Shown here piece by piece: positions 28,901-64,000 of a stretch of DNA of 64,000 nucleotides. The stretch is from Corallium rubrum. Its lineage: Eukaryota > Cnidaria > Anthozoa > Scleralcyonacea > Coralliidae. Position 1 is the first letter of the stretch. The number at the start of each line of letters is the position of its first letter. A model generated the notes under the pieces. The model was not told the DNA's origin. It did no database searches and worked only from the letters and a program-made list of their open reading frames with translations. Location of the stretch: positions 17,209,760-17,273,759 of the forward strand of contig OZ035998.1 in the NCBI GenBank assembly GCA_964035015.1, written 5' to 3'. Position numbers and translations under genes: made by a program.

Positions 28901-31900
28901 TTCTTTTACAAACTTGTTATGAATTAATATAGGTTCAATTTAATCTTGCAAAGTTTGAACTACCTTGATTAATACAAAAATAAACAATTTAGCATCTGGC
29001 TAATTTGGCACTAATTGTCAGCTTTTTAACAATAAGCTACTAATAGCATTTCACTGACTTTAATACAAATAAAAAATCTGTATTAAATGATCCCCCCCCC
29101 CCCCCCCTATCCAGATATGGTTAAACTAAAAAGTAAAATACAGTGCATGTAAACCTCTTTATTTCAATGTATTTTATTTAAAGCAAAACAATGCAAATCT
29201 TGATACACTTACGGAAAACCGTTACATCCACGAAAGACGACAGTTTCGAGACTTCTCCTAGAGTTCCTTTACATTGATATTTCCCAGAGTCTTTAACACT
29301 TGAATTTGCAATCAGTAGCTGATCAATTGAAATGACCTTGTATCGATTTGATGATGATATATCGAGAGGTTTGCCATCTTTAATCCAATATAAATTACTT
29401 ATTTTTGCAAAACCGATTACATCTTCATAGGTACATCTTAAGCTAAAGTTCACCCCCTCTTTAACTTGCACTAAAGAAGACCAGACTTTAAGAGTAGGAA
29501 AATCTAATAAATAAGAAAAACCATTCTTAAGTAATAGCATTACATTACATTGCATTGCATTGCGTTGCGTTGCGTTGCGTTGCGTTGCGTTGCGTTGCGT
29601 TGCGTTGCGTTGCGTTGCGTTGCGTTGCGTTGCGTTGCGTTGCGTTGCGTTGCGTTGCGTTGCGTTGCGTTGCGTTGCGTTGCATCGCATCGTTCCGCAT
29701 TGCATTGCATTGCATTGTACCGTATCGTATCGTATCGTATCGTATCGTATAGTATCGTATCGTATCGTATCGTATTGTATTGTATTGTATTGCATTACAG
29801 TGCATTACACTACACTACAGTGCATTGTATTGCATCGCATCGAATTGCATTACAGTGCATTGCATTGCATTGCATTGCATTGCATTGCATTGCATTGCAT
29901 TGCATTGCATTGCATTGCATTGCATTGCATTGCATTGCATTGCATTGCATTGCATTGCATTGCATTGCATTGTATTGCAGTTTTACTTAGCTTTTCATGA
30001 ACAATATAACTTTTCATAATATTTGCATACGCCGTGTTACAATACGTCACACTTACCTGCACCATGAAATTCAAATATCCAATCGCATTTAGGTAAAATT
30101 AAAATTTACTGAAATAACATTTTCTACTTACTTTTTACCGATACGTAAGCAACAGGTCTATAAGCGCTCCTGACTTCATTACTAGCGTTGCAACTATATT
30201 GTCCGTTGTTTTTCATCGTCACGTTATGCAAGAATAGCATTCCATCATTTTGTACAATTGCCGTAATTGATGTCGTTATGTTTTGTCCCAGTAAATACCA
30301 TGTAAACGTTGGATCTGGTTTTCCATCGCCATTACATGATATTGTTATATTTTCACCTTCGTAGATAATATAGTGACCAAGCCATTTAGGATCATTTAAA
30401 TCTATAACATCAATAACATCAGTAAAATAAAAAATATATATATCAAAACACAACTCAGCAATTATGTAGTTATTTAAAGTTAGGCAAACCCGTTTACTTA
30501 CACCATACTGTTAAGTTAACTTGTTTTGACTCTCTGCTTTTTCCACCTCTGCTGACTTTGCAACTGTACTGTCCATCATCATTTCTTAAAACAGGGTTGA
30601 TCTCAAGGCTTCCATTTGCCAAAAGGGTATATCTAGGCCTTCTAACGTTTACGATGCGATTTTCTTTCAGCCAGCTGTAGGTTAAGTTCTGTTTATCACC
30701 ACCTCTGCATGATAGTACAACAGAATTGTTTTCCACACCTACTGGTTGCGTTGGAGTTACAAAAATGTCAGGAAGTGCTATAAGAAAACATACAAGATGT
30801 TGATATACAGTACCTTCAAGTTTTCAGTTACTGTAAGTTAGAGCAAAATTGCGAGGGTGTGCCTAAGCGCAGTTTAAAAATTAAAGCTTAGCTAATAGAT
30901 TTACAATTTCACAACATTGTTAAAATCTACTAAATGTATACTATAGTAGTAAGAATTAAGAATTCATAGCTATTCTTCATTCAGTTATACAGTAAAACCC
31001 CGCATATAAGAACCTGCATTTTTCAAGTTAGCCTAAAAAGGTTCTTATATAATTAGTGTTTACTGGGAAATTAGGCTATTTGGGTTCTTAAGAAAAAAAA
31101 AGTGTTTCTGGAAGAATATTGGTACAGCCCAGTTCACTGGTACAGCCTATTATTTATACAAAAAATGAATATAATTATGTCTAAATGACTTCAATCTTAA
31201 AAAATACAAACCTATCCTTGGTTATCGTATTCGCTGTATGCCCTTTTTACTTTGAATTCTTAAGTATAGTAAATTATAAAATAAGAACCTTTTCAAATTT
31301 TAGGCTAAAACAGGTTCTTATGTGAAGGGGGTCTAAATGGACAATCTTAGCCTAACAGGTTCTTAAAAGCCAGGTTCTTATATGCGGGGTTTTACTGTAC
31401 TTTTAATCTAAAAAAACGTATAATTTTATTTTAGCCAATTTGAGCCAGGAAATATTTTTTAAACAAAATCCGATTATCCATTAATTTTTACCACGTTCAT
31501 TGGAAAACCGCAATTTTTAAATATTATATACTCGGAGACTTGTAGATTGTCTCTACAAACATGCACAGATGAGAACACCAACAGAGTCAAAACAATTTTG
31601 AACAATATTTAAAGTTGTTTAATTTTAAGAATCATGAGAATATACCCTTCGTGAATAGTGTGTTATATATTACGTAGCAATTTCTCATTACAAAAACAAA
31701 TTAATAATTTTTAACAATTGTGCATAAATAGAAAACACACACAAAAGAGACAATCAAAGAGACTTACCATAAATGTCTAACACAATTCTGGCGATTGTAA
31801 TGCCATGGCCATTTGTAGCTTGACATGAATAATTTCCGCTATCAGAAAAAGTTGTTGACAAGATAATCATGGTAGACTTCACACCATATTCATTGATACT

Positions 31901-40106: not shown

Positions 40107-40943
40107 TTAGATGGTTATGAAGTCTATCCTCGTGCTCAGAGTGAAAATCTTTAAGAACTTGCTTGGTAGAGGTATAGACGTCATACTGGATGTTTGAGCT
40201 GTTGCTGGTTGACTTCCATAGTTCATTGATCTGTTTGTTGGGAGATGTTTTAAGAGCTGTCGAAGTACTGTTTGGCATTGGGTGAATTTGACTGATGGCG
40301 GACAAATACTAAGGCCGAATTTGTTTCGGGTTAAGAAAACGGTACTTAATGTTCCCGATATTGGTATTTCAAGCCACTTCCGAATGTAACTGTTCATTAC
40401 GGAGTCGATATTTTCTGATATCCAAGTTTTTGACAGAGAAGTAACGGTGAAATGCCAAGAGATTTTGGACAAAACAAAGCGAGTGTACAGTAGGATTTTA
40501 TTTTTTGGATGGAGTGGCTTCGAGTCAATATCAGTCATTAGTTCGTCAATGAGCGTGGTAAGTTCAGATTTATGTTGCTGATCTGTCATCTTAAAATCAA
40601 AATATCTCCCAAGATATCGAAAACATTCTCCAATTTTGGTAGCTGGAATTAGCTGGTTGCCAATAAGGAGTTTAGGTAGGTATTGGATAGATTTTGTTAC
40701 ATCTTTTTTAATGCCAAAGGAACTACATTTATCAACCCGGATAATCATGCTGGACCATTTGCACCAAATAGCGAAACGGTTCAAAAGATGTTGGTTTTCT
40801 TTTTCTTGACTAGTTATTACGGCAGCGTCATCGGCAAACTGAAACCAGTGGATGGGATTTATAAATTGGAAGGAGAAACCAAATTGACGATACTTCTCAT
40901 CTTTGATATGTTGAATAAAGGTGTTAAAACACATATTAAATAG
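40107..40943 (-). pseudogene. RLE-LINE reverse transcriptase, C-terminal half
   Basis: An open frame with LFNMCFNTFIQHIK, the catalytic box FQFADDAAVITS, then FRYLGRYFDFK and LLYTRFVLSKISWHFTV. It is cut at the high end by the hAT element at the codons after 'QGDCLSPL'. Confidence 0.85.
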
Positions 40944-41367
40944 AAGAGGACCAGTGGCGTGCTGGCAGGGGGGCCGGGGGGCCATGCCCCCCCCCCCCAG
41001 TTAAGATTTTTTAGGGGGCGCCAAAACTGAAAGGGGGCGCCAAAATTGCCCCAAAGGACACAAAAGCGTTAGTCGGTATTTGGTCATGTACCTACGAGCC
41101 ACGACTATTGCCGTATTGCATTGTTGTTAGTTGTCACACGCAATCGCTGAATAGAGCATCGGAGTTGAGCACATTTGTCATTTGTGGCTTGCTAGCCAAA
41201 TTAGGCAATAGGTATACTGTGTTGTTCGATGGCTTCAGCCTCGCTCGCTGCGGCAAAATTTACATTTGAAAATCAAATCCAAAACCTTTCAACTTACAAT
41301 AAAAACCCCACTTATTTTCAATTCTCCTAATCTGATCATCTGCGTTATGCTACTATAGCCTGCAGAT

Positions 41368-45766: not shown

Positions 45767-45942
45767 TTACACTATTTAGTCATGTAGTATACACTCATTG
45801 CTATGCTCATGGGCTCAACTTCGTCTTTTCGGACTCAGATATGATGCTTACAAAGATGCATGGAAATTTGGGGGCTGGGGGCGCCAAATTCACTGTTGGC
45901 CTCCCCTGACGAACAAAGGCCAGCACGCCACTGAAGAGGACT

Positions 45943-47459
<1,517 letters not shown>

Positions 47460-48555
47460 TGTCACTATCAAGATGTCGATGGATAAAAGTTGCCTGGAGA
47501 CGGGAGCATAAAAATGAGTATTGTTCGATAAAGAGGGAAGCAGAAGAGGCAATGGAGATGGCTGGAGAAGAAATTAGTTTCGGGATAGGAGAGGTTTACT
47601 TGAATGGCGAAAAGATGTGTGGAACTTGGAAGGATGCTTAGAGGAGGTTGAAAACCTTGCTGAAATCGAAGACGGAAGAAGGACGTATCAATCAATATCG
47701 AGAGAAGAAGTTACAAAGTGAGGTTTTCATGGGTCAAGAAGAGAAATGTAACCAGTGGTTGGAGTGCAACCTAGACTCCAGAAAGATGGCAGCAGTGATG
47801 GGGATGTTAGAGCAGATGGTCGAGACCAGAGCTTGAAAGGCCTTAAGGGGAATAGATCCGATAGAATCGGAGAATTGTAGATTGTGTTCTGATAAGAGAG
47901 AAACCGTACATAATTTGTTGGCTGGATGTAAGGTTGTTGCTGGTAATGAGTACATGATAAGGCATAACAATGTGCTAATGGTATTTGCTGTGGAATGGGG
48001 AAAAGAGGCAGTCTTGCTTGAAGAGAGTGTAGTGTGGTACAAAACAGCGTGGAAGAAAGGAACAGTTATTGAAAAGCCGGGTAAAAAGCTTGTGTGGGAC
48101 TTTGAATACAAGATGAGAAAGACAACAACAGCAAGAAGACCTGATCTGATTCTGGAAGACATCGAGGAAGGTAAAATTTGGATAGTAGACATGGCATGTC
48201 CTGCAGAGGCGAACATTGCAGAGAAACGGAGGGGAAAATTGCAGAAATACCAACAGCTGGCATTTGAAATCCGCGAGAGGCGTCTAGGCTTTATGGTTGA
48301 AATAGTACCTTTGGTAGCCGGATGCTTAGGAGGAGGGTTGGAGAAATTGGAAGAACAGATAGAGAAGAAGATAAAAGAGAAATCCCGACAGAAGTGGGTA
48401 CTAAAAGAAATACAAAAGATCATATTAATGGAGAGTGAATCCATTTTAAGGAAAGTGATGTCTAGGGTGGTGCAAGTAGAGTAGACTCAAACAAAAGATA
48501 AAAACAATTTGGTATCTTGAGGTTTTGGCCCATAGAAAATGGGCTCTATATAACC

Positions 48556-48556
<1 letters not shown>
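47460..48556 (+). mobile_element. R4/Dong-like LINE copy C, C-terminal part
   Basis: Coding from the RT thumb end to a stop at 48483, with two premature stops (near 47639 and 47834). Domains: CRLCSDKRETVHNLLAGC knuckle, then ARRPDLILEDIEEGKIWIVD endonuclease core. A 3' region of about 70 bp follows before (AAT)n. It is close to copy D in text, e.g. shared WIKVAWRRE, KYQQLAFE and MESESILRK-like words. Confidence 0.85.
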
Positions 48557-48633
<77 letters not shown>

Positions 48634-48652
48634 GTAATAATAATAATAATAG
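48557..48652 (+). repeat. (AAT)n microsatellite
   Basis: About 95 bp of AAT units with a few AGT variants. It is read through as Asn repeats at the start of the copy D ORF, which is a by-product. Confidence 0.97.
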
Positions 48653-50801
48653 TATTGTGAAAGATTATCGACCGATCACGTGCTTGAACACAGTATATAA
48701 AATCTACACTGGAATGATTGCAAAATATTTGAAAAGCCATGCAGAACGAAACGAAATGTGGGATCAAAATCAAATGGGAACGAGAGAAGGTGTATTGGGA
48801 ACAGTTGATCAGTTACTAGTTGACAATTGTATCATGGATGAAGTGCGCGAACAACACCGGAATCTAGCCGTGGCGTATTATGATTATCAGAAAGCATATG
48901 ACATGGTACGGCATGACTGGATCTTAAAAGTTTATGGGTGGATGGGAGTGCCAGAAAATGTATGTAGGCTGGTCGAAAACCTGATGAAAAAGTGGATGAT
49001 TAAGCTGGAAATTAGGGTGGATGGGGAGAAAAGAATGAGTAGATGGATAAATATACGAACAGGGTTTCTACAAGGAGATAGCTACTCGCCAGTGGGTTTT
49101 TGTTTAAGTGAGGTACCAGTGATGATGATGTTAAGAGAAACAAAAGGATACAGAATGGGACCATCTGGCAACAGAGAAGTAGTGAGAACGCACAGTCTGT
49201 TCGTGGACGACCTGAAAGTATATCAGGAAAACCACGAGAGGCTGGCTATTGCAAATGAGATTATCGTACAAGCGAGTCATGATACAGGGGCATGTTATGG
49301 TGTCAAGAAATGCGCTGAGATAGTGTTTGAAAGAGGCAAGATGGTGAAAAGCGAGGGACTAGATATCCTTGAAGAAAGAATGAAGGCTCTAGACCCTGAA
49401 ACTAGCGAAACCTACAAGTTTCTCGGATGCGAACAAGGAAAGAAAATAGATAAAGAGAAAGTGCTAGAAAGAGTGTCATTGGAGGTGCAGGAAAGAATGG
49501 AAAGTCTGGTACAGATGGAGCTATATGATAAGAATCTAGTTAAAGCTATAAACTGTAGAGTAGTACCAGTAGCGGGGTATGTAATGAATGTATGCCGATT
49601 TAGTAAAAACGATTTAGCAGAACTAGATATGATTGTCAAACGGGTGTTGAGGAAAAATGTGATGCACGGACGACAGGCAAGTAATGAGAGACTATATTTA
49701 CCACGAAATAAAGGAGGAAGAGGACTGAAAAGTATGCGAGATGTCTATAATGAGACCAAAGTTAGAATAGCTTGCTATATGACATATTCGCAAAGTGAAT
49801 GGATCAAAGTGGCTTGGAGGCGGGAATGCAAAAAGGAATATTGTTCTATTAAGAGAGAAGCAGAGGAAGCGATGCTAGACATAGGGGAGAGCATTAAGTT
49901 CGGTGAAGAGGCGGTGTGGCTAAATGGCGAAAGGATGTGTGGGGAGTGGAAAGAGATATGGGGTAAACTGAAAGCCATGTTACAAACCAAGACCGAGGTG
50001 ATGCGTATAGAACAATATACAAAGAAAATCTTACAAAGTGAAGTGTATAGAGGGATCGAGGAGAAGGGCCATGGATGGCTGGAGTGTAATATGGACTCAA
50101 GAAAGACAGCAGCAGTAATCCTTATGCAAGAACAGATGGTGGAGACACGGACATGGAAAGCCCTTAGAGGAATGGAGGTGGAATCGGAAATGTGCCGCCT
50201 ATGCGGCATACAGAGAGAAACAGTACACCATCTGTTATCAGGATGTAAAGTAGTAGCTGGAAACGAATATGTACGAAGACATAACAACGCATTAATGGTG
50301 TTGGCTGTAGCATGGGCAAAGCAAGAAGGGTTGATAAATAAGGATGCGGTATGGTACAAAATACAATGGAAAAAAGGAAATGTGTTGGAGGGAAGTGGAA
50401 TGAAGCTCTGTTGGGACTTGGAATATTGTATGAGAAAAACAACTACTGCAAGAAGACCAGATCTAACGTTGGAAGACAACAACAAGAAACTAATATGGTT
50501 CGTAGACATGGCATGCCCAGCAGAGATAAACATTGTACATAAACACCAAGAGAAGCTACAGAAATACCAACAACTAGCTTTCGAAACTCGTGAAAAACGA
50601 CGAGAATACAAAGTCCAAATCGTTCCAGTTGTAATTGGAAGTTTAGGTGGAGGTATGGTAAAGGCGAGGAGACAAATTGGAAAGGTAATACGAAACGAAA
50701 AAGAAGTTGAATGGATTGGTAACCAAATGCAGAAGACGGTGCTGATCGAAAGTGAATCGACACTACGCAAAATAATATCTGGGATCGTACAAGCAGAGTG
50801 A
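48653..50801 (+). CDS. R4-like RT plus restriction-like endonuclease, about 715 codons
   Basis: RT motifs: DYRPITCLNTVYKIYTGMIA, VAYYDYQKAYDMVRHDW, TGFLQGDSYSPVGFCLSE, and the catalytic box LFVDDLKVY, which is VDD rather than the ADD or MDD of other LINEs here. The thumb has YKFLGC. C-terminal parts: CRLCGIQRETVHHLLSGC and ARRPDLTLEDNNKKLIWFVD, the CCHC knuckle and PD-(D/E)-x-K endonuclease of R2/R4-type elements. No stop or shift was seen, so loss of the 5' end is its only visible defect. Confidence 0.88.
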
Positions 50802-54725: not shown

Positions 54726-54844
54726 CACAGTGGTGGGTTTGCGCAGATACATGTACGCATAGCGGACCTTTTGTTATATAAATATTACCATATCGAAGTG
54801 CGTGTTCAAATGTAAGGTTATATATCACCGAAATAGACCCTAAT

Positions 54845-56589
54845 TGAGAACTCTGGCCGACATTGTTAAAGCTGGCGTTACCAAAGCCCCTCCGCGTACA
54901 ATCGAATACCGTTCTTACAGACACTACAATAAAGAGTGCTTCTTAAAAGACCTTAAAGATATCGATTGGTCTGTTGTAGAAAATGACGACATTGATGTTA
55001 CTGTTAATAACTGGTGCAAATGTTTTACAGATATAGCAGATCACCACGCGCCTATCAAGAAAATGAGAGTTAAGGGGGTTAGAATTCCGTGGATGACTTC
55101 TGAACTCAGCCAGGCAATGCAAAATCGAGATCACCATCACAAGAAGGCTCTCAAAACACAATCGAAAAAACATTGGTCTACATACCGCAAACTCCGTTGT
55201 TTTGTAAATAAGAAAATTCGCGAATGCAAATCTAAGTACTATGAAAATTTGATTCAAGACAACAACAAAAATCCGTCCGGTCTTTGGAAAACACTTAATG
55301 AAATAACATCTCGTAATAAGTCGTCACAAGCCCCATGTTCTATTGTTTCGGATGGGGTGGAATACCAAAACATTAAGTCAATAGCATCTCTGTTTAACCA
55401 ATTTTTTACAAGTATTGGAGTAACTTTGGCCAACGCAATCAAACAAAAATGTACACCTACTGTATCTCCGGAACTGGCATTCCGACTTAATCCATCTTTT
55501 AAATTCAAAGAGATCGAGGTTTCTTCTGTCCTTAAACAGCTGTTAACTCTTAAAACCAACAAAGCTACCGGCCTCGACCGTATCAGCGCCCGTCTAATGA
55601 AAGATGCAGCTACAGTCATAGCTCCATATTTAACCCATATTTTTAATAAATCTCTCAAGTCTGCCACTTTCCCTAAGATCTGGAAAGACGGCAAAGTAAC
55701 ACCACTTTTTAAGTCAGGAGATCGCTCAAATATGTCAAATTACAGACCTATTACTGTCTTACCAACCCTGAGTAAAATTCTGGAGCGCTTTGTCCATACG
55801 CAGATTTACAATTATTTAACTGAACACAAAATCCTTTCATCGCAACAGTTTGGCGTTAGACCTAAACTATCTACCAGTACCGCTTTGGCCTTTTTTACGG
55901 ATAATATTCTTCAAAATGCTGATAACGGTCTTGTCACGGCCTCTGTTTTCCTGGATTTTAGCAAGGCATTCGACACAGTTGATCATAGCATTTTGTTGAA
56001 TAAACTGAAATCTATTGGCCTAGATAATAATTCACTAAGTTGGTTCCAGTCATACCTTACCTCCCGTCGACAAATAACAGCTATTAACGACAAGCTGTCT
56101 AGCTCTTTACCAGTGTCAGTTGGTGTTCCACAAGGCAGCATCTTAGGTCCTTTGCTGTTCATCATTTACATTAACGATATGCCTAACATTGTCAAACACT
56201 GCAAAATAATACTCTACGCAGATGATACTCTTCTATATTATTCCTCTAACTCTGCCAAGGACATTCAGATATACGTTAATGAAGATCTTAAATCGATTTC
56301 TCAATGGTTGGATAATCTTCTCACATTAAATTGCATAAAATCCAAGTTCCTTCTTTTTGGTAGTAATAGTCGTTTGAAAGCGTTTGCTGACATTTCAGTA
56401 CATATCAACGAACATCAACTTGCCCGAGAACGAAGTTTTAAATACTTAGGAATAACGTTTTCAGAAAACCTCTCCTGGTTTGAACATTTGGATAAAATAT
56501 CAACAAAAATTAGCCAACGTATCGGATTGCTAAGAAGAGTTAAAGCCTTCATTCCAATTAAAGCTCGCCTTACTGTATATAATGCTCTT
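54845..56589 (+). pseudogene. LINE RT, part before the insertion
   Basis: An open frame without a usable ATG, starting after the endonuclease domain. Motifs: NYRPITVLPTLSKILERFV, FGVRPKLSTSTALAFF, VFLDFSKAFDTVDHSIL, GVPQGSILGPLLFIIYINDM and the catalytic LYADDTLLYY. No stop or shift before 56589, so the host LINE was young when hit. Confidence 0.9.
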
Positions 56590-57215
56590 AGTAGTAATAC
56601 CCCCCCATATGGCGGCCAAAGGGATGCCGCCTCATTAAATATTCAACTTATTGTTTATTCATTCTCCTTTGTGACGTTCTAACCCTAATCTCATTATGCA
56701 TACGTCATTATTTCTCAGGCTCCTTTGGGACGTAGTAACCCTAACTCTCCCTCCAACCCTAGTTGTTACTCAACCCCCCGTGTAATACGTCATTCCCGAT
56801 AGGTCTCCGACTGATTCCCGAAGTTCTGGGTTACGTAATTATCAAAAGGCACTTGACTTATATCCTTACAAGTACTAGTAATTACCTTTTCATTTATACA
56901 CTTTTCCCTACTGACAGTCGACAGTTGTGGGACACGTAGACGTACAGAGCATGCGTACAGTAAACTTTAACAAAATAGACGTTCTTTACAAGGAACTAAA
57001 GAGAAAGTGAGAGAGGCACTTTATATTTTTTATCTGAAACCTTGTCTCGATGAGTATAGAGAGTTTTGGGCAGCCGAAGTGTCTGAATTGGCAGAGCTCG
57101 TATAGACTCAGATTAATAGCATACATGAATATTATATCAGTTTGGAACTTAAACGGCCAAACAGTTCTTTACACATTTGCTTGGACATATGTGCCGAATT
57201 GTCGCTTATTTGGCT

Positions 57216-57422
57216 TTAGTTTATAAAGTAAACGATGCCTTGAATGAAGAAACCGTTCGGCAAGCTGTTCGAAAGACATTGAAACACTTTCTTCAGATAA
57301 ACGGCTGACTCGGCTATTTTATTAACGTCGTCAAGCATCTTGTTAATGTTGCTACGGCTGATATTTGCATATTTATCCTGAGTGCACGTGCAGGAGACAA
57401 AAGAAAAACTCATTAGGGGCAA
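57216..57422 (-). CDS. Small 68-residue arm ORF, left copy
   Basis: Starts MPLMSFSFVSCTCTQDKYAN and continues NINKMLDDVNKIAES, a possible amphipathic helix. The right-arm copy at 63098-63304 is identical in protein. No family recognised. The identity reflects recent arm homogenisation as well as possible function. Confidence 0.4.
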   Translation of the reverse strand: MPLMSFSFVSCTCTQDKYANISRSNINKMLDDVNKIAESAVYLKKVFQCLSNSLPNGFFIQGIVYFIN

Positions 57423-57520
57423 TTAAGAGGATTAAGCGCTTAGGCAGGTATAGGCGAGAAAGTCATTAGCGTGCACTTTGCATAAGACAGAATTCACAAC
57501 AATCGGTTTAAAATATTTAT

Positions 57521-57809
57521 TTACACAAAAAACTCTTGATTATTTAGTGATCTATCGGTAACACTAGCATATGGACATACAGTACATCTTATAATCCGAA
57601 GGCATGGATCATGAGTCTTGAATTCTGTACCACAAACATTACATATCAGATTTCGAATAACGCATTTGTTAAAATATTTCCACAAAGTCCACAAACACTT
57701 AGGACACTCAATTACATGTGTAAAAGTAACAGGATTCTGACAACGTTCGCAATCAACAGGTTCGTCAATTATAGAATTTTCTGATTCTATTTCGGTGTAA
57801 TCTTTATCG
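57521..57809 (-). pseudogene. Zinc-ribbon protein, C-terminal part, left arm
   Basis: This is the left-arm counterpart of the gene at 62315-62999. Four Cys pairs remain: CERC, CPKC, CNVC and CTVC. The N-terminal part is cut off by the left-only segment; its first ~30 codons survive at about 58779-58873. One residue differs from the right copy in the shared part (Ile for Thr before ECPKC). Confidence 0.7.
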
Positions 57810-58778
57810 TAAAAATTATTTACAAACACACAAAGTTAAAATTCATAAATGTCTCCTTTTTGCTACCGGTTCTTTTCTGTTTCTAGTCGCCAACCACTCT
57901 CCGAAAGCCATTACTTCCGCTTTTGCACAGTGATGGTATGCATTTGGTGTTATGTGATTGCCACATGTTTCCAACCAAATCATGTCATCAAAAAGAAATG
58001 AAGCTTTAGGACAACCATAGTTTTGCAAGTTTAGTGATGGAATATCCAGTCTTTTCAGAAGATCCCTTTCAAAGTGACCGCCTTTAAATGCCAACATGGA
58101 CTGTTCGTTTATCTTTATGTCGGTATAGAGGGTTGCCACAATGCGATCAAGATCGCTCATCGGGAAGGCTTTCGTACCCCTAGGCACCCCGAAGGGGAGT
58201 TTATGTATATGATTCATTACATATATGCAGCTCTTTTTATCTCGTTCGTTCAAAGAGTACCAATTAACACCAAGATCGAAAAAATAGGAGTGAGCCTCTT
58301 CTCTCCGCACGTCTAACAGACCCAATTCTTTACAGCAGAATTTCCCGTTTATAATGAAGCCATCCATATCTAATATTCCCACTATGTTTTCCATCGTCAC
58401 GCGCTTAGTTGCCTTTCTGATATAAATCAGAACATTTTCTAAGTGTTCTCTCTCATAGTGTTTTCTGATATCCATGTGTTCTTTGAAAAACGAATGCCGA
58501 CGCAGGGATGGATAGTTTGTTACGACATAATAGGCGAATTAAGCGATATTAGCATTTGTGTTCTAGCATGTATCCTTAACCCGACATTCACGGGTGACTT
58601 TTAAATCAGCCGCTCTATTCATATGAATGTTTGATGTTTTCAACTTGTGTAATCTATTTTTAATTACGCCATGCTTGCCGCTCTGTATAGTTGAACGTCT
58701 ATTAAAAATTGTCAAGACTCTCGTATATAAAATCCCCACAAATTAGAGTTCCCCTACAAAGAACAAATTAGAGTTCCC
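57810..58778. other. Left-arm-only segment
   Basis: This segment of about 970 bp replaces about 305 bp of the right arm (62407-62711). The borders are at GCAAAGAAGACGC (inner side) and ACGATAAAGATTACACC (outer side). A 28-bp direct repeat, ACAAATTAGAGTTCCCCT with a few more bases, lies at the inner border (58737-58786). The segment carries the exonuclease-like gene at 57843-58475. Confidence 0.75.
57843..58475 (-). CDS. DEDDh exonuclease-like protein, 210 residues
   Basis: ATG at 58475, TGA at 57843. Possible RNase-H-fold exonuclease motifs in order: ILDMDGF at about 33-39 (D-x-D where DEDDh enzymes have D-x-E), FKGGHFERDLLKRLDI at about 129-144, LFDDMIWLE at about 160-168 and HHCAKAEVMAFGEWL at about 181-195 (HxAxxE in place of HxAxxD). 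Small GG-containing exonuclease-like genes of this kind are, from memory, common in cnidarian mobile elements. The order of motifs is visible; the enzymatic role is inference. Confidence 0.55.
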   Translation of the reverse strand: MDIRKHYEREHLENVLIYIRKATKRVTMENIVGILDMDGFIINGKFCCKELGLLDVRREEAHSYFFDLGVNWYSLNERDKKSCIYVMNHIHKLPFGVPRGTKAFPMSDLDRIVATLYTDIKINEQSMLAFKGGHFERDLLKRLDIPSLNLQNYGCPKASFLFDDMIWLETCGNHITPNAYHHCAKAEVMAFGEWLATRNRKEPVAKRRHL

Positions 58779-58915
58779 CTGCAAAGAAGACGCTGTCGCT
58801 TCATCCACTCCGTAGTCAAAGTGTGACAGTATTTCTTTAACACGAAAATCATCATGTAATCTTTCTCCCATCGTGTTCAGGGTTCGAATGAGGGTCTTTA
58901 CAAAATATCGTTCTT

Positions 58916-59233
58916 TTATATTAGTTCTGCGAGTCCTTCTAAAACAGGACCAAGTAAGACATCAAGAAATCCTGCACCTTTTTGAACCAGTATCTCCTTC
59001 TTTCTCATAAAACTACTTCGGGGACTAGCCAAAGTTGATATGTCGTCGCTATAAGGCTTAACGTCTTCAAGCAAAGCAGGTGATAATTGATATTGTATTG
59101 ACCAAAAGTTAAACATACAATCACAAATGCATCTAATTTGCTCGGGGCTTGCAGTCTCCAACAGAGCTCGCTGTTGAATAGGTTCACTTGTACATAAAAG
59201 TTCAAGAAACGGTTTGTGCTTTTTGATCAACAT
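58916..59233 (-). CDS. Conserved small arm protein, 105 residues, left copy
   Basis: A basic, Leu-rich protein starting MLIKKHKPFLELLC, with RALLETASPEQIRCICDC in the middle and GAGFLDVLLGPVLEGLAELI at the end. It differs from the right copy (61953-62270) at two residues, both conservative. Similar 100-120-residue proteins accompany Polinton/adintovirus-like genes in marine invertebrates, by my recollection; no function is established from sequence. Confidence 0.6.
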   Translation of the reverse strand: MLIKKHKPFLELLCTSEPIQQRALLETASPEQIRCICDCMFNFWSIQYQLSPALLEDVKPYSDDISTLASPRSSFMRKKEILVQKGAGFLDVLLGPVLEGLAELI

Positions 59234-59290
59234 CTCTATTTGACAGTCAGTGTCTAAATGAGGAAAACGCTACCAAAACACACATTTTAA

Positions 59291-59832
59291 GAGGAGGAGG
59301 AGAAAGAGGAGGAGGAGGAGGAGGAGGAGGAGGAGAAAGAGGAGGAGGAGGAGGACGAGAAAGAGGAGGAGGAGGAGGAGAAAGAGGAGGAGAAGGAGGA
59401 GGAGGAGAAAGAGGAGGAGGAAGAGGAGGAGAAACAGGAGGAGGAGGAGGAGAAAGAGGAGGAGGAGGAGAAAGAGGATGAGAAGGAGGAGGAGAAAGAG
59501 GAGGAGGAGAAGAAAGAGGAGGAGGAGGAGGAGGAGAAAGAGGAGGAGGAGGAGGAGAAAGAGGAGGAGGAGAAAGAGGATGAGAAGGAGGAGGAGAAAG
59601 AGGAGGAGGAGGAGGAGAAGAAAGAGGAGGAGGAGGAGGAGGAGAAAGAGGAGGAGGAGGAGGAGAAAGAGGAGGAGGAGGAGGAGAAAGAGGAGGAGGA
59701 GGAGGAGAAAGAGGAGGAGGAGGAGAAAGAGGAGGAGGAGGAGAAAGAGGAGGAGGAGGAGAAAGAGGAGGAGAAGGAGGAGAAGGAGGAGAAGGAGAAA
59801 GAGGAGGAGGAGGAGAAAGAGGAGGAGGAGAA
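59291..59832 (+). repeat. Purine tract (GAGGAGGAGAAAGAGG)n, left
   Basis: About 540 bp almost without pyrimidines on the plus strand, built of GAGGAG and AAAGAGGAG blocks. It is the inner end of the left arm. Long Ser/Phe/Leu, Arg or Glu ORFs over it are by-products. Confidence 0.97.
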
Positions 59833-59841
59833 ATAAATTAT

Positions 59842-61224
59842 ATGACATTCTCTAGAAATGTTTATTCTGCTCATGTTCTTCAACAAGTGAACATGTCTTA
59901 TGTCTGCAGCACTTGTGGAAAAACGTTTTCTACACTATTCAACATGCAACGTCATATAAAAAATTTCCATAAAAACAGTACTTATTCAAGACCAGCACAT
60001 CTTCTCAATGACGCAACAGTCATGCAGCATCCATTTACTTGCATTGTCGCTGGATGCACACAGAGTGGTAAAACAGTATGGGTGAAAACGCTTCTTGAAA
60101 ACGCCAAAACTACGATTAATCCTCCTCCCGAACGTATCATTTGGTGCTATGGGCAATGGCAGCCCATGTATTTAGAAATGATCAAAACAATACCAGGCAT
60201 CGAATTCTATGAGGGTATACCTTCCGACATTGACTCTGATAATTTTCTTGAAGTCTCTCAACGTAACCTGATCGTCCTCGATGATCTCATGGATCAGTCA
60301 GGAAGAGATAAACGTATTGCTAGTCTATTTACTAAAGGTAGTCATCACAGGAATCTCTCCGTGATCTATATTGTTCAGAATATATTTCACCAAGGCAAAG
60401 AAACAAGAAACATCAGCCTCAACGCACACTATATCGTACTATTCAAGTCTCCAAGGGATAAGCAACAAATTTCTGTCTTGGCACGGCAGGTGAACCCAGG
60501 TCATGTCCATGAATTTATGAAGAGTTACGAGGAAGCCACAACTCGTCCTCATGGTTATTTAATGCTTGATCTGAAACCGACCACGGACGACGATCATCGC
60601 CTCAAGACCAATGTTCTACCTGGAGAAAATAGCTCAAGCCTGCAGCAACAGCTGGGTAGTTTCATACAAAAGCAATCCTATCAATTACCTCCAATCGTTA
60701 ATGCCATGTACAATACAGAACAAAAAATGCAAGATATTGTACAAGCGCCACAGTTAACACCTGACGAAAAGAACGTACTTTACTCCAATCAGCTAGGACG
60801 TTTCCTGACGTTTCAAAACCAACTGCATAATCAGTCTCAACCTCTGACTAATCTTCAAACTCAGCAAAATACAGAAAATTTGACACCGGAGATAAAGCAA
60901 GAAACTGACGATCTTCCGTGGAGTTTCCATGCTACACCTAAAACCTATTTTGTAACACCGCCTCCTACCGTTGAACAACCGACGCTTAAACATAATTTCT
61001 TTCATAATTGGGAAAGCTCTTCGGATTGGAAGGAAAGCGACTTGGCAAAGATGACCCCAGATGATAGAGAAGAGTATGAACATCATCTATTGATGACTAG
61101 ATCAAAATATTTACCCATGACAAAAGAAGATGTATCACAATTATCACCAGAAGACAAGAAAGACTATCACGCTACCTTTAAAATAAAAACGCCTAAATAT
61201 AATCTAAGAAGCAGACCTTACTAA
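59842..61224 (+). CDS. FtsK/HerA-type (A32-like) DNA-packaging ATPase with N-terminal C2H2 finger
   Basis: Genome-packaging ATPase of the Polinton/adintovirus type, which pumps DNA into capsids. A C2H2 finger (CSTCGKTFSTLFNMQRH and on to H) comes first, residues 22-45. Walker A is GCTQSGKT at about 71-78 and Walker B LIVLDDLMD at about 142-150. Typical later motifs are IVQNIFHQGKETRNISLNAH and VLFKSPRDKQQ. The C-terminal 170 residues are Gln/Pro-rich and end basic (KYNLRSRPY). ATG at 59842 has T at -3; ATG at 59893 (A at -3, 443 residues) is a better start. The frame is intact, and it is the only gene in the single-copy loop. Confidence 0.88.
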   Translation: MTFSRNVYSAHVLQQVNMSYVCSTCGKTFSTLFNMQRHIKNFHKNSTYSRPAHLLNDATVMQHPFTCIVAGCTQSGKTVWVKTLLENAKTTINPPPERIIWCYGQWQPMYLEMIKTIPGIEFYEGIPSDIDSDNFLEVSQRNLIVLDDLMDQSGRDKRIASLFTKGSHHRNLSVIYIVQNIFHQGKETRNISLNAHYIVLFKSPRDKQQISVLARQVNPGHVHEFMKSYEEATTRPHGYLMLDLKPTTDDDHRLKTNVLPGENSSSLQQQLGSFIQKQSYQLPPIVNAMYNTEQKMQDIVQAPQLTPDEKNVLYSNQLGRFLTFQNQLHNQSQPLTNLQTQQNTENLTPEIKQETDDLPWSFHATPKTYFVTPPPTVEQPTLKHNFFHNWESSSDWKESDLAKMTPDDREEYEHHLLMTRSKYLPMTKEDVSQLSPEDKKDYHATFKIKTPKYNLRSRPY

Positions 61225-61259
61225 AACTTTTTATATGTATATGTTTGAACGAAAACCGA

Positions 61260-61265
61260 AATAAA
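61260..61265 (+). terminator. AATAAA polyadenylation signal
   Basis: AATAAA lies 36 bp after the ATPase stop codon, in the loop and before the pyrimidine tract. It supports pol II expression of the gene. Confidence 0.6.
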
Positions 61266-61317
61266 TATTTTTAAGCTAAATGCTTTTGTATGTATGTATG
61301 TGTGTGTGTTTATTTGT

Positions 61318-61897
61318 TCCTCCTCCTCCTCCCCCTTCTTCTCTTTCTCCTCCTCCTCCTCTTTCTCCTCCTCCTCCGCTTTCTCCTCCTCCTCCTCTTT
61401 CTCCTCCTCCTCCTCCTCCTCCTTCTCCTCCTTCTCCTCCTCTTTCTCCTCCTCCTCCTCCTCTTTCTCCTCCTCTTTCTCCTCCTCCTCCTCTTTCTCC
61501 TCCTCCTCCTCCTCCTCCTCCTCTTTCTCCTCCTCCTCCTCCTCTTTCTCCTCCTCCTCCTCCTCTTTCTCCTCCTCCTCCTCCTCCTCTTTCTTCTCCT
61601 CCTCCTCCTCCTCTTTCTCCTCCTCCTCCTCTTTCTCATCCTCTTCCTCCTCCTCCTTCTCATCCTCTTCCTTCTCATTCTCTTTGTCCTCCTCCTCCTC
61701 CTCTTTCTCCTCCTCCTCTTCCTCTTTCTCCTCCTCCACCTCCTCTTCCTCCTCCTCTTTCTCCTCCTCCTCCTCCTTCTCCTCCTCTTTCTCCTCCTCC
61801 TCCTCCTCCTCTTTCTCCTCCTCCTCCTCCTCCTCCTTCTCCTCCTCCTCTTTCTCCTCCTCCTCCTCCTCCTCCTCCTCCTTCTCCTCCTCCTCTT
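61318..61897 (+). repeat. Pyrimidine tract (CCTCCTCTTTCTCCT)n, right
   Basis: About 580 bp of C/T on the plus strand, the inverted counterpart of 59291-59832. The block order differs in detail between the two tracts. Confidence 0.97.
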
Positions 61898-61952
61898 AAA
61901 ATGTGTGTTTTGGTAGCGTTTTCCTCATTTAGACACTGACTGTCAAATAGAG

Positions 61953-62270
61953 ATGTTGATCAAAAAGCACAAACCGTTTCTTGAACTTTTATGTACAAGT
62001 GAACCTATTCAACAGCGAGCTCTGTTGGAGACTGCAAGCCCCGAGCAAGTTAGATGCATTTGTGATTGTATGTTTAACTTTTGGTCAATGCAATATCAAT
62101 TATCACCTGCTTTGCTTGAAGACGTTAAGCCTTATAGCGACGACATATCAACTTTGGCTAGTCCCCGAAGTAGTTTTATGAGAAAGAAGGAGATACTGGT
62201 TCAAAAAGGTGCAGGATTTCTTGATGTCTTACTTGGTCCTGTTTTAGAAGGACTCGCAGAACTAATATAA
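61953..62270 (+). CDS. Conserved small arm protein, 105 residues, right copy
   Basis: ATG at 61953 and an intact frame. Same protein as 58916-59233 with Val and Met for two Ile. It is followed after 44 bp by the gene at 62315 on the same strand, so both may be expressed from this arm. Confidence 0.6.
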   Translation: MLIKKHKPFLELLCTSEPIQQRALLETASPEQVRCICDCMFNFWSMQYQLSPALLEDVKPYSDDISTLASPRSSFMRKKEILVQKGAGFLDVLLGPVLEGLAELI

Positions 62271-62314
62271 AAGAACGATATTTTGTAAAGACCCTCATTC
62301 GAACCCTGAACACG

Positions 62315-62999
62315 ATGGGAGAAAGATTACATGATGATTTTCGTGTTAAAGAAATACTGTCACACTTTGACTACGGAGTGGATGAAGCGACAGCGTCTTC
62401 TTTGCTGAATAGTTTACTCGCGTCCTATGTCAACTTAACATGGAATCCCAAAGGAGAAATTGTGTATCAAGGAAGAACTATACCAAACACAAAAATAGCC
62501 GAATTGGTAGAATACTGCGTATCACCTTACGTCTCAGGCAATTCCCGAACCAGCTGGTCTAAATGTATTTGTAAAAGGACTCGCCGACATTAACATTGAC
62601 AAAAACCTTATCGAAAATGTTCGAGTGCTGACAATGTTGGCGCAGGCAGAAGAAGAAACAGAATCAGAGAGCGAAAACGAAGAAACGTCCTCCGAAGAAG
62701 ATTCAGAACACGATAAAGATTACACCGAAATAGAATCAGAAAATTCTATAATTGACGAACCTGTTGATTGCGAACGTTGTCAGAATCCTGTTACTTTTAC
62801 ACATGTAACTGAGTGTCCTAAGTGTTTGTGGACTTTGTGGAAATATTTTAACAAATGCGTTATTCGAAATCTGATATGTAATGTTTGTGGTACAGAATTC
62901 AAGACTCATGATCCATGCCTTCGGATTATAAGATGTACTGTATGTCCATATGCTAGTGTTACCGATAGATCACTAAATAATCAAGAGTTTTTTGTGTAA
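62315..62999 (+). pseudogene. Acidic-linker zinc-ribbon protein, right arm, one frameshift
   Basis: N-terminal part starts MGERLHDDFRVKEILSHFDY and includes WNPKGEIVYQGRTIPNTKIA. The frame shifts near 62541; a second frame continues through an acidic linker (EEETESESENEETSSEEDSE) to four Cys pairs (CERC, CPKC, CNVC, CTVC) and a stop at 62997-62999. Total about 228 codons. The W-x(3)-G-x-I-x(3)-G-x-x-I pattern recurs, from memory, in proteins of Polinton-type elements. In the left arm the same gene is broken by the exonuclease-bearing segment. Confidence 0.7.
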
Positions 63000-63097
63000 A
63001 TAAATATTTTAAACCGATTGTTGTGAATTCTGTCTTATGCAAAGTGCACGCTAATGACTTTCTCGCCTATACCTGCCTAAGCGCTTAATCCTCTTAA

Positions 63098-63304
63098 TTG
63101 CCCCTAATGAGTTTTTCTTTTGTCTCCTGCACGTGCACTCAGGATAAATATGCAAATATCAGCCGTAGCAACATTAACAAGATGCTTGACGACGTTAATA
63201 AAATAGCCGAGTCAGCCGTTTATCTGAAGAAAGTGTTTCAATGTCTTTCGAACAGCTTGCCGAACGGTTTCTTCATTCAAGGCATCGTTTACTTTATAAA
63301 CTAA
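63098..63304 (+). CDS. Small 68-residue arm ORF, right copy
   Basis: Protein identical to the left-arm ORF at 57216-57422. No domain recognised. Confidence 0.4.
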   Translation: MPLMSFSFVSCTCTQDKYANISRSNINKMLDDVNKIAESAVYLKKVFQCLSNSLPNGFFIQGIVYFIN

Positions 63305-63937
63305 AGCCAAATAAGCGACAATTCGGCACATATGTCCAAGTAAATGTGTAAAGAACTGTTTGGCCGTTTAAGTTCCAAACTGATATAATATTCATGTATG
63401 CTATTAATCTGAGTCTATACGAGCTCTGCCAATTCAGACACTTCGGCTGCCCAAAACTCTCTATACTCATCGAGACAAGGTTTCAGATAAAAAATATAAA
63501 GTGCCTCTCTCACTTTCTCTTTAGTTCCTTGTAAAGAACGTCTATTTTGTTAAAGTTTACTGTACGCATGCTCTGTACGTCTACGTGTCCCACAACTGTC
63601 GACTGTCAGTAGGGAAAAGTGTATAAATGAAAAGGTAATTACTAGTACTTGTAAGGATATAAGTCAAGTGCCTTTTGATAATTACGTAACCCAGAACTTC
63701 GGGAATCAGTCGGAGACCTATCGGGAATGACGTATTACACGGGGGGTTGAGTAACGACTAGGGTTGGAGGGAGAGTTAGGGTTACTACGTCCCAAAGGAG
63801 CCTGAGAAATAATGACGTATGCATAATGAGATTAGGGTTAGAACGTCACAAAGGAGAATGAATAAACAATAAGTTGAATATTTAATGAGGCGGCATCCCT
63901 TTGGCCGCCATATGGGGGGGGGGGGGGTATTACTACT

Positions 63938-64000
63938 GCTCTCATTCTCCCACTGTTTGATTACGCAGACATTATATGGGGTGACAAAAATAACTCCTCT
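63938..64000 (+). pseudogene. LINE RT, part after the insertion
   Basis: After the second target copy (GCTCTC) the RT thumb region continues as ILPLFDYADIIWGDKNN to the window edge, in the same frame as the part ending at 56589. Confidence 0.88.

What the first reader, a model, noticed from the sequence alone, without database searches (positions are those of the whole stretch)
56590..63937. A Polinton-like element reduced to a packaging ATPase inside a giant inverted repeat
Seen: AG-starting terminal repeats, a 6-bp target duplication (5 of 6 identical), arms of 2.6-3.2 kb that are inverted copies, and one single-copy gene between them, an intact FtsK/HerA-type ATPase. Known: Polintons/Mavericks have such ends and encode PolB, integrase, protease, ATPase and capsid genes. 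None but the ATPase is visible here. Inference: a satellite that keeps its own packaging motor while borrowing replication, integration and capsids from a full Polinton or adintovirus. Keeping the motor, not the integrase or polymerase, is unusual and would suggest selection for packaging. Near-identical arms and an intact gene point to recent activity.
Basis: partly seen in the sequence, partly recalled or inferred. Interest (0 to 1): 0.88.

Follow-up and report, generated by a model that had tools for sequence, protein, structure and literature searches.

The report
Palindromic Polinton satellite with packaging motor
This is one copy of a small repeated DNA parasite that seems to borrow replication, insertion and shell genes from larger virus-like elements in the same genome while keeping its own apparently intact DNA-packing motor, which would make it a possible eukaryotic counterpart of the phage satellites of bacteria.

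Summary
The element is real: 56590-63937 (7,348 bp), AGTAGTAATA inverted ends, 6-bp target duplication GCTCTT/GCTCTC in a reverse-transcriptase ORF that reads on across the empty site. It is not a one-off. The ATPase search gave 95 scored matches at 90-100%, the window's own included. Of 22 copies read, 17 hold both ends: 14 perfect and 3 5/6 duplications; 19 of 21 window-type copies have long inverted arms. The ATPase is open in 21 of 21, pooled dN/dS 0.19 (copies picked by protein score). PolB, integrase, capsid, penton and protease queries hit 0 of 17 bounded elements. A Polinton in the genome with integrase, capsid-like genes and PolB (one end read) shares the terminal sequence. It is not ATPase-only: the arms carry relatives of two Polinton genes, a decayed E1B-19K-like stretch and, here, another ORF. 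A second satellite-type family (116 ATPase copies, 84 in inverted pairs) has no listed capsid or PolB gene nearby. Best reading: a copy-back deletion derivative turned satellite, its motor kept by selection; packaging is inferred. The ATPase zinc-finger end differs sharply between families while the motor is conserved.

The parts
54844..56589 (+). Host non-LTR retrotransposon reverse-transcriptase ORF interrupted by the insertion
   Evidence: RVT_1 E 7.7e-37; empty-site translation TVYNAL-ILPLFDYADIIWGD
56584..56589 (.). Left target-site duplication GCTCTT
56590..63937 (.). Whole element, 7,348 bp, AGTAGTAATA at both ends
56600..57810 (.). Left outer inverted-repeat arm (terminal repeat plus 3' part of g2)
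   Evidence: reported 100% complementary to 62710-63920
57180..57302 (+). Decayed E1B-19K/Bcl-2-like stretch, left arm
   Evidence: tblastn with the 122-aa protein of L034, E 4e-9
57811..58780 (.). 970-nt segment in the left arm of this copy, in place of 304 nt
   Evidence: no blastn match (E 1e-20, 150 nt or more) in 20 of 20 related loci
57846..58475 (-). ORF210, uncharacterised protein; high-copy family often in inverted pairs
   Evidence: 143 proteins at E 1e-3; 158 matches in own genome; no Pfam or PDB match
58746..58871 (-). 5' remnant of g2 in the left arm, cut by the 57811-58780 segment
58919..59233 (-). pX-like 105-aa ORF, left arm
59291..59836 (+). GGA-type purine repeat
59893..61221 (+). 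Packaging ATPase, 443 aa: N-terminal C2H2 zinc finger, Walker A GCTQSGKT, Pox_A32 match
61318..61895 (+). CCT-type pyrimidine repeat (inverted partner)
61953..62267 (+). pX-like 105-aa ORF, right arm
   Evidence: 31% identity to L031:888-1220
62315..62999 (+). g2 gene, split over two frames in this copy (224 aa where open)
   Evidence: relative in L031
62710..63920 (.). Right outer inverted-repeat arm
63218..63340 (-). Decayed E1B-19K/Bcl-2-like stretch, right arm
63938..63943 (.). Right target-site duplication GCTCTC

Best explanation
The element belongs to a multi-copy family of non-autonomous satellites of Polintons (adintovirus-like endogenous viruses). Origin (inferred from gene order): a Polinton lost the integrase-to-capsid block, and its PolB half was replaced by an inverted copy of the other end, leaving two like termini around ATPase, pX-like and g2 genes. 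Mobility (inferred): protein-primed replication and integration are supplied in trans by larger Polintons that share the terminal sequence. Maintenance: the ATPase frame is kept open and looks under purifying selection (shown, with an ascertainment caveat), most simply because it packages satellite DNA into helper-made capsids (inferred). The sharp difference of its zinc-finger end between satellite families suggests that this end picks the DNA (inferred, weak).
For: 95 scored ATPase matches at 90-100% identity, the window's own included, 91 without an internal stop (95 scored of 2,176 candidates). 17 of 22 copies read have both ends; target duplications differ by locus, 14 perfect and 3 at 5/6. 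Arm-to-arm matches of at least 1.4 kb, pooled identity 93.5-99.8%, in 19 of 21 copies. In 14 elements the pX-g2 part of the arms is 99.8% alike within an element against 99.1% between elements (medians), own partner nearest in 24 of 28 arms. ATPase dN/dS 0.19 pooled, 0.16 for shared variants. Nine Polinton queries (two PolB, integrase, two MCP, penton, pVI, protease, GRF) hit 0 of 17 elements; each finds its own source locus, and PolB, MCP, penton and protease also hit another Polinton lineage. A Polinton with integrase, capsid-like genes and PolB shares CCAAAGGGATGCCGCCTCATTAAATATTCA near its end. pX-like and g2 are related to proteins beside its ATPase (31% and 27% identity), and an E1B-19K-like relic lies near the satellite ends (16 of 17). 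0 of 95 type-A ATPases within 20 kb of the 76 PolB positions compared; 0 of 116 type-B satellite-like ATPases within 10 kb of a listed MCP. L022 is one element whose halves carry the two ATPase types, TSD 6/6.
Against: No particle, transcript or mobilisation data. The dN/dS copies were the best by protein score, which lowers dN. pX-like and g2 show weaker constraint (0.43, 0.55), and g2 is broken in the window copy. No Polinton with this ATPase lineage was found. The Polinton used as helper model was read at one end only, and its ATPase start is out of frame in that copy. The genome-wide searches for the terminal repeat, the PolB protein and the integrase did not complete, and the answered lists are capped, so helper counts are incomplete. 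81 of 94 capsid loci have no PolB of the compared list within 15 kb.
Confidence: 0.65

Rival explanations
1. Ordinary dead-end deletion or rearrangement products of Polintons, multiplied with their helper but without selection on any gene (a large MITE-like family).
For: Terminal block shared with a Polinton; E1B-19K-like gene decayed; g2 broken in the window copy; weak constraint on pX-like and g2.
Against: ATPase gapless and open in 21 of 21 read copies, dN/dS 0.19 pooled and 0.16 for variants shared by at least 2 copies; 91 of 95 scored matches without a stop; both sets were ranked by protein score. A second ATPase family has the same arrangement.
Confidence: 0.18
2. One part of a multipartite Polinton: ATPase, capsid and PolB genes sit on separate elements that complement each other.
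For: 0 of 95 type-A ATPases near a compared PolB; 81 of 94 MCP loci without a compared PolB within 15 kb; PolB inverted pairs exist.
Against: The Polinton read here has ATPase, pX-like and g2-like genes of its own next to PolB and MCP, so the satellite genes look redundant with it, although the ATPase start of that copy is out of frame; 9 of 26 Polinton-type ATPases have PolB and 12 of 26 have MCP nearby; the PolB list is partial (76 candidates scored of 1,079).
Confidence: 0.1
3. The palindrome is an artefact of assembly or of repeat collapse.
For: Giant inverted repeats are a known assembly hazard (general knowledge); the assembly has 312 contigs.
Against: Same geometry at 19 of 21 loci, and matched target duplications at the 17 of 22 with both ends; arms differ by 0-0.4% within elements in the region compared; asymmetric and hybrid elements exist; the empty site restores a host ORF.
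Confidence: 0.03
4. The ATPase is kept as a weapon, interfering with helper packaging for the benefit of satellite or host, not for packaging the satellite.
For: Nothing specific; it fits a conserved ATPase with a changed zinc-finger end equally well.
Against: Walker A and DD motifs are kept, so the enzyme looks active; no evidence on expression or host benefit.
Confidence: 0.06

Closest known systems
Polintons/Mavericks (Polintoviricetes) and adintoviruses
   Same: AG-starting inverted ends, 6-bp target duplication, packaging ATPase with Pox_A32 match, pX-like and g2 relatives; 30-nt terminal block shared with a Polinton in the same genome
   Different: 5.4-8.1 kb in the 17 bounded copies instead of the 15-20 kb stated in PMC4028283 (passage seen); no PolB, integrase, capsid or protease found; long inverted arms
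MITE-like and other non-autonomous DNA transposons
   Same: Share ends with a larger relative and lack its enzymes
   Different: Carry protein genes, one apparently under purifying selection
Phage-inducible chromosomal islands (PICIs), which redirect helper packaging
   Same: Would likewise use a satellite-encoded packaging determinant with borrowed capsids (PMC6739421, title and start of abstract seen in listing)
   Different: Eukaryotic; whole ATPase rather than a redirecting factor; packaging not demonstrated
Palindromic defective adenovirus genomes (left-end inverted duplications, recalled)
   Same: Internal deletion plus inverted copy of one end of a protein-primed linear genome
   Different: Here inserted in chromosomes and multi-copy; no paper on the adenovirus case was retrieved
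Virophages
   Same: Small relatives of Polintons that depend on another virus
   Different: Virophages encode MCP, penton, protease and ATPase (PMC11071308 passage); of these only the ATPase was found here

Membership tests
Polinton/Maverick (autonomous) | Inverted ends starting AG and 6-bp target duplication (feature recalled) | tested here: met
   14 of 17 perfect, 3 of 17 at 5/6; 5 of 22 lacked an end
Polinton/Maverick (autonomous) | Protein-primed PolB | tested here: not met
   two PolB queries, 0 of 17 elements
Polinton/Maverick (autonomous) | RVE integrase | tested here: not met
   0 of 17 elements; the query finds only its own source L034
Polinton/Maverick (autonomous) | Packaging ATPase | tested here: met
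   Pox_A32 above cut-off; homologues with Walker A
Polinton/Maverick (autonomous) | Major and minor capsid proteins | tested here: not met
   two MCP queries and one penton query, 0 of 17 elements; MCP and penton labels are recalled
Polinton/Maverick (autonomous) | Cysteine protease | tested here: not met
   0 of 17 with the protease-like ORF of L035 as query; it does detect L034
Non-autonomous Polinton satellite | Shares termini with an autonomous element in the same genome | tested here: met
   30-nt terminal block shared with L034, one end read, autonomy of that copy not shown; genome-wide repeat search not answered
Non-autonomous Polinton satellite | Multi-copy with independent insertions | tested here: met
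Packaging-redirecting satellite (PICI-like) | Satellite-encoded packaging determinant under selection | tested here: inconclusive
   dN/dS 0.19 on copies picked by protein score
Packaging-redirecting satellite (PICI-like) | Satellite DNA found in helper-made capsids | not testable with these tools
   needs particles
MITE | No coding capacity | tested here: not met
   ATPase open in 21 of 21 read copies

The most novel reading that the evidence does not exclude
A eukaryotic capsid-pirating satellite. Two lineages of largely palindromic elements each carry a packaging motor whose DNA-reading zinc finger has been exchanged or remodelled while the motor is kept, so that helper capsids are loaded with satellite DNA. 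This would be a Polinton counterpart of phage-inducible islands, with the two-ended genome produced by copy-back replication.
Probability: 0.33. Interest if true: 0.92.

Novelty: new variant of a known kind. Interest (0 to 1): 0.8.

Why it matters
Whether Polintons still make particles in animals is open (general knowledge). A satellite family that keeps a packaging motor under selection would be indirect evidence that packaging happens, and would give a simple test: sequence nuclease-protected DNA and look for it. It would also bring satellite-helper piracy, well known in bacteria, to endogenous viruses of eukaryotes, and show how a protein-primed genome can turn into a palindromic satellite. 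In six searches of the held library the listings showed no ATPase-bearing palindromic Polinton satellite; most subscription papers are not in it, and most listed papers were not opened.

Tried and rejected
ATPase in viral contigs: no relative with the single sequence or with alignment A1. ATPase in phage records: no match. Rfam on the window: 0 at gathering score. ORF210 by Pfam and by PDB profile: nothing usable; a recalled resemblance to RNase H-type exonucleases was not tested, because structure prediction never ran. Idea that zinc-finger type follows terminal-repeat type: dropped, since window-type copies have several tip types, and L016 has different subterminal sequences at its two ends. 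Idea that this ATPase belongs to the other (beta) PolB lineage: the one such element read, L035, has a different ATPase. Genome-wide terminal-repeat census: not answered in any try.
Full report
What is there. The element runs from 56590 to 63937. Both ends read AGTAGTAATA; the flanks carry GCTCTT and GCTCTC. It sits in a non-LTR reverse-transcriptase ORF (RVT_1 E 7.7e-37), and joining the flanks with one duplication gives an uninterrupted frame. The outer arms (1,211 nt) are reported 100% complementary, the inner arms 90%. Between purine and pyrimidine repeats lies a 443-aa ATPase with a C2H2 finger and a Pox_A32 match; the 13 aligned family members keep the Walker A residues and the paired aspartates.

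The arms are coding. Each arm of the window copy carries a 105-aa ORF (pX-like, a label recalled from adenovirus core proteins), 31% identical to a 111-aa protein beside the ATPase of a Polinton; with that protein as query 15 of 17 bounded elements match. A 224-aa ORF, called g2 here, is open in 25 arms of 16 of 21 copies. It is related to a 243-aa protein in the same position in L031 (27% over 96 aa, E 2e-11 for the single comparison; L033's version similar), although tblastn with the 243-aa protein against the 17 elements reached E 1e-3 in only 1 of 17. In the window copy g2 is broken in both arms. The left arm has a 970-nt segment in place of 304 nt, with a 210-aa ORF (ORF210); none of 20 loci matched it at E 1e-20 over 150 nt, but L032 carries a 71% relative. 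Near each end is a decayed stretch similar to the Polinton's E1B-19K/Bcl-2-like protein (16 of 17 elements, not L030).

The family. The ATPase search scored 95 of 2,176 candidates; all 95 match at 90-100%, the window's own among them, and 91 have no stop. I read 20 further loci of the closest kind (L009-L028) and one of the next group (L030). Of these 21 plus the window, 17 show both ends; 13 target duplications are 6/6 by script, and L009 is 6/6 once an extra AGT is allowed for; L021, L030 and the window are 5/6; L013, L024, L025, L027 and L028 lacked one or both ends and were left out. Arm-to-arm matches of at least 1.4 kb at a pooled 93.5-99.8% occur in 19 of 21 window-type copies, repeats included; L017 and L022 are the exceptions. 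In the 14 elements with both arms complete, the pX-g2 region has a median identity of 99.8% between arms against 99.1% between elements (range 98.1-100), and 24 of 28 arms have their own partner as nearest; the four others are in L020, L023 and L024. So arms tend to be made alike within each element, as expected if one strand templates both ends at replication (inference).

Selection. The ATPase is gapless and open in 21 of 21 copies; pooled dN 0.0082, dS 0.0440, ratio 0.19 (210 pairs; single pairs reach 1.17). Variants shared by two or more copies: 13 nonsynonymous, 21 synonymous (site-corrected 0.16); singletons 49 and 48 (0.26). These copies were the best by protein score, which favours low dN; the estimate needs an unbiased set. 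pX-like and g2 give 0.43 (18 elements) and 0.55 (16 elements).

The helper. L034 and L031, neighbouring stretches on contig C13, hold GRF zinc ribbon, E1B-19K-like, rve integrase with chromodomain, penton-like, pVI-like and MCP-like ORFs, a 243-aa protein, pX-like, ATPase type B and PolB. GRF, integrase, ATPase and PolB pass Pfam cut-offs; E1B-19K stays below its cut-off; penton, pVI and MCP names are recalled from sequence look and position, though MCP and penton match a second Polinton lineage, L035. The protease-like ORF of L035 matches somewhere in L034 (E 5e-14); I did not place it. Only the left end was read, and the zinc-finger start of its ATPase is out of frame in this copy, so this copy need not be autonomous. 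That end reads AGTAGATGACCCC...CCAAAGGGATGCCGCCTCATTAAATATTCA; the window ends share this block, and L033, an element with ATPase type A, pX, g2 and ORF210, shares more. Of 13 Polinton queries, nine (PolB two kinds, integrase, penton, pVI, MCP two kinds, protease, GRF) hit 0 of 17 elements; E1B-19K hit 16, ATPase-B 17, pX 15, the 243-aa protein 1. Each query finds its own source, which is a weak control; PolB, MCP, penton and protease also cross between the two Polinton lineages.

Copy-back origin. In the Polinton the order from the left end is GRF, E1B-19K, integrase, penton, pVI, MCP, then (other strand) the 243-aa protein, pX, ATPase, PolB. The satellite half reads end, E1B-19K relic, g2, pX, ATPase. 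This fits loss of the integrase-MCP block and replacement of the PolB half by an inverted copy of the other end. L022 joins an ATPase-A half to an ATPase-B half in one element with a 6/6 duplication, so halves look exchangeable.

A second family. ATPase type B gave 142 matches, 142 scored of 1,557 candidates: 116 at 90% or more and 26 below 80%. The list is ranked by likeness to the satellite query and capped, so 116 against 26 is not a census. Of the 116, 84 are in inverted pairs within 8 kb; over all 142 there are 45 inverted neighbour pairs and no direct one; 0 of 116 have one of the 94 MCP positions within 10 kb or one of 32 PolB positions within 15 kb. Of the 26, 12 have MCP and 9 have PolB nearby, and 6 are in inverted pairs. 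L032 is one such satellite-like element; its ends were not in the fetched stretch. Type-A ATPases: 10 inverted neighbour pairs, 1 direct; 0 of 95 within 20 kb of 76 PolB positions, 1 within 40 kb. ORF210: 27 inverted, 2 direct among 87 of the 158 matches. PolB: 4 inverted, 0 direct among the 76.

Zinc-finger difference. In 60-nt bins the first two bins (about 120 nt) of the ATPase are 50-60% identical between window, L030 and L033, the third 80-83%, the rest 80-100%. Polinton L031 against satellite L032 shows 52-65% in the first three bins, then 83, 62 and 78-92% up to the end of the gene. This is a module swap or rapid change; that it sets DNA choice is inference.

Results against. 81 of 94 MCP positions (95 matches; a second piece of one gene left out) have no PolB of the 76 compared within 15 kb, which may mean many partial Polintons, a partial PolB list, or a split genome. 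No Polinton with the type-A ATPase was found. The terminal-repeat, PolB-protein and integrase searches did not complete, and no structure was obtained.

Literature. Seen: listings and passages of PMC11071296, PMC11071308, PMC6431247, PMC2871265, PMC4028283. No described counterpart was seen in these. After the filing check I added, corrected the helper and control statements, lowered the main confidence from 0.66 to 0.65 and raised the dead-end rival from 0.17 to 0.18, because the helper was read at one end only and its ATPase start is out of frame.

Noticed in passing
57843-58538 (minus); L032, L033: ORF210: an uncharacterised protein family with 143 proteins at E 1e-3 in the public set and 158 matches in this genome, often in inverted pairs 2.5-6.7 kb apart; conserved DMDG, HKLPFG and CxKVEVEAF motifs.
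   Followed up: partly
L022:1657-9789: Hybrid element: one half from the type-A satellite, the other with the type-B ATPase, with a perfect 6-bp target duplication.
   Followed up: partly
L029 (C49:8476340-8486330) and three other PolB pairs: PolB genes in inverted pairs: in L029 4.67-kb arms at 99.8% around a truncated ATPase, so copy-back forms may also arise from the PolB half.
   Followed up: partly
positions: Of 94 MCP positions, many full-length and open, only 13 have a compared PolB within 15 kb; partial or split Polintons possible.
   Followed up: partly
L035 (C1:69890300-69898200): A second Polinton lineage with its own PolB, ATPase, MCP-like ORF and an adenovirus-type protease-like ORF (labels partly recalled).
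   Followed up: partly
L034:4374-4742: E1B-19K/Bcl-2-like gene (Pfam E 1.9e-4, below the curated cut-off) in a Polinton, with decayed stretches in the satellite arms.
   Followed up: partly
P0002, P0015, P0022, P0023: Close ATPase homologues (60-66%) lie on metagenome contigs of 4.7-6.4 kb, about satellite size; they may be satellites of other hosts.
   Followed up: no
L033 (C8:1420300-1428900): A satellite-type element that appears nested inside a PolB ORF.
   Followed up: partly
13724-15875: hAT-type transposase pieces (DUF4371 and hAT dimerisation domain).
   Followed up: no
9078-10265, 40107-41000, 45835-46458, 48480-50801: Further reverse-transcriptase ORFs (RVT_1); one carries a run of asparagine codons.
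   Followed up: no
29178-29804 (minus): Possible host exon with an immunoglobulin domain.
   Followed up: no
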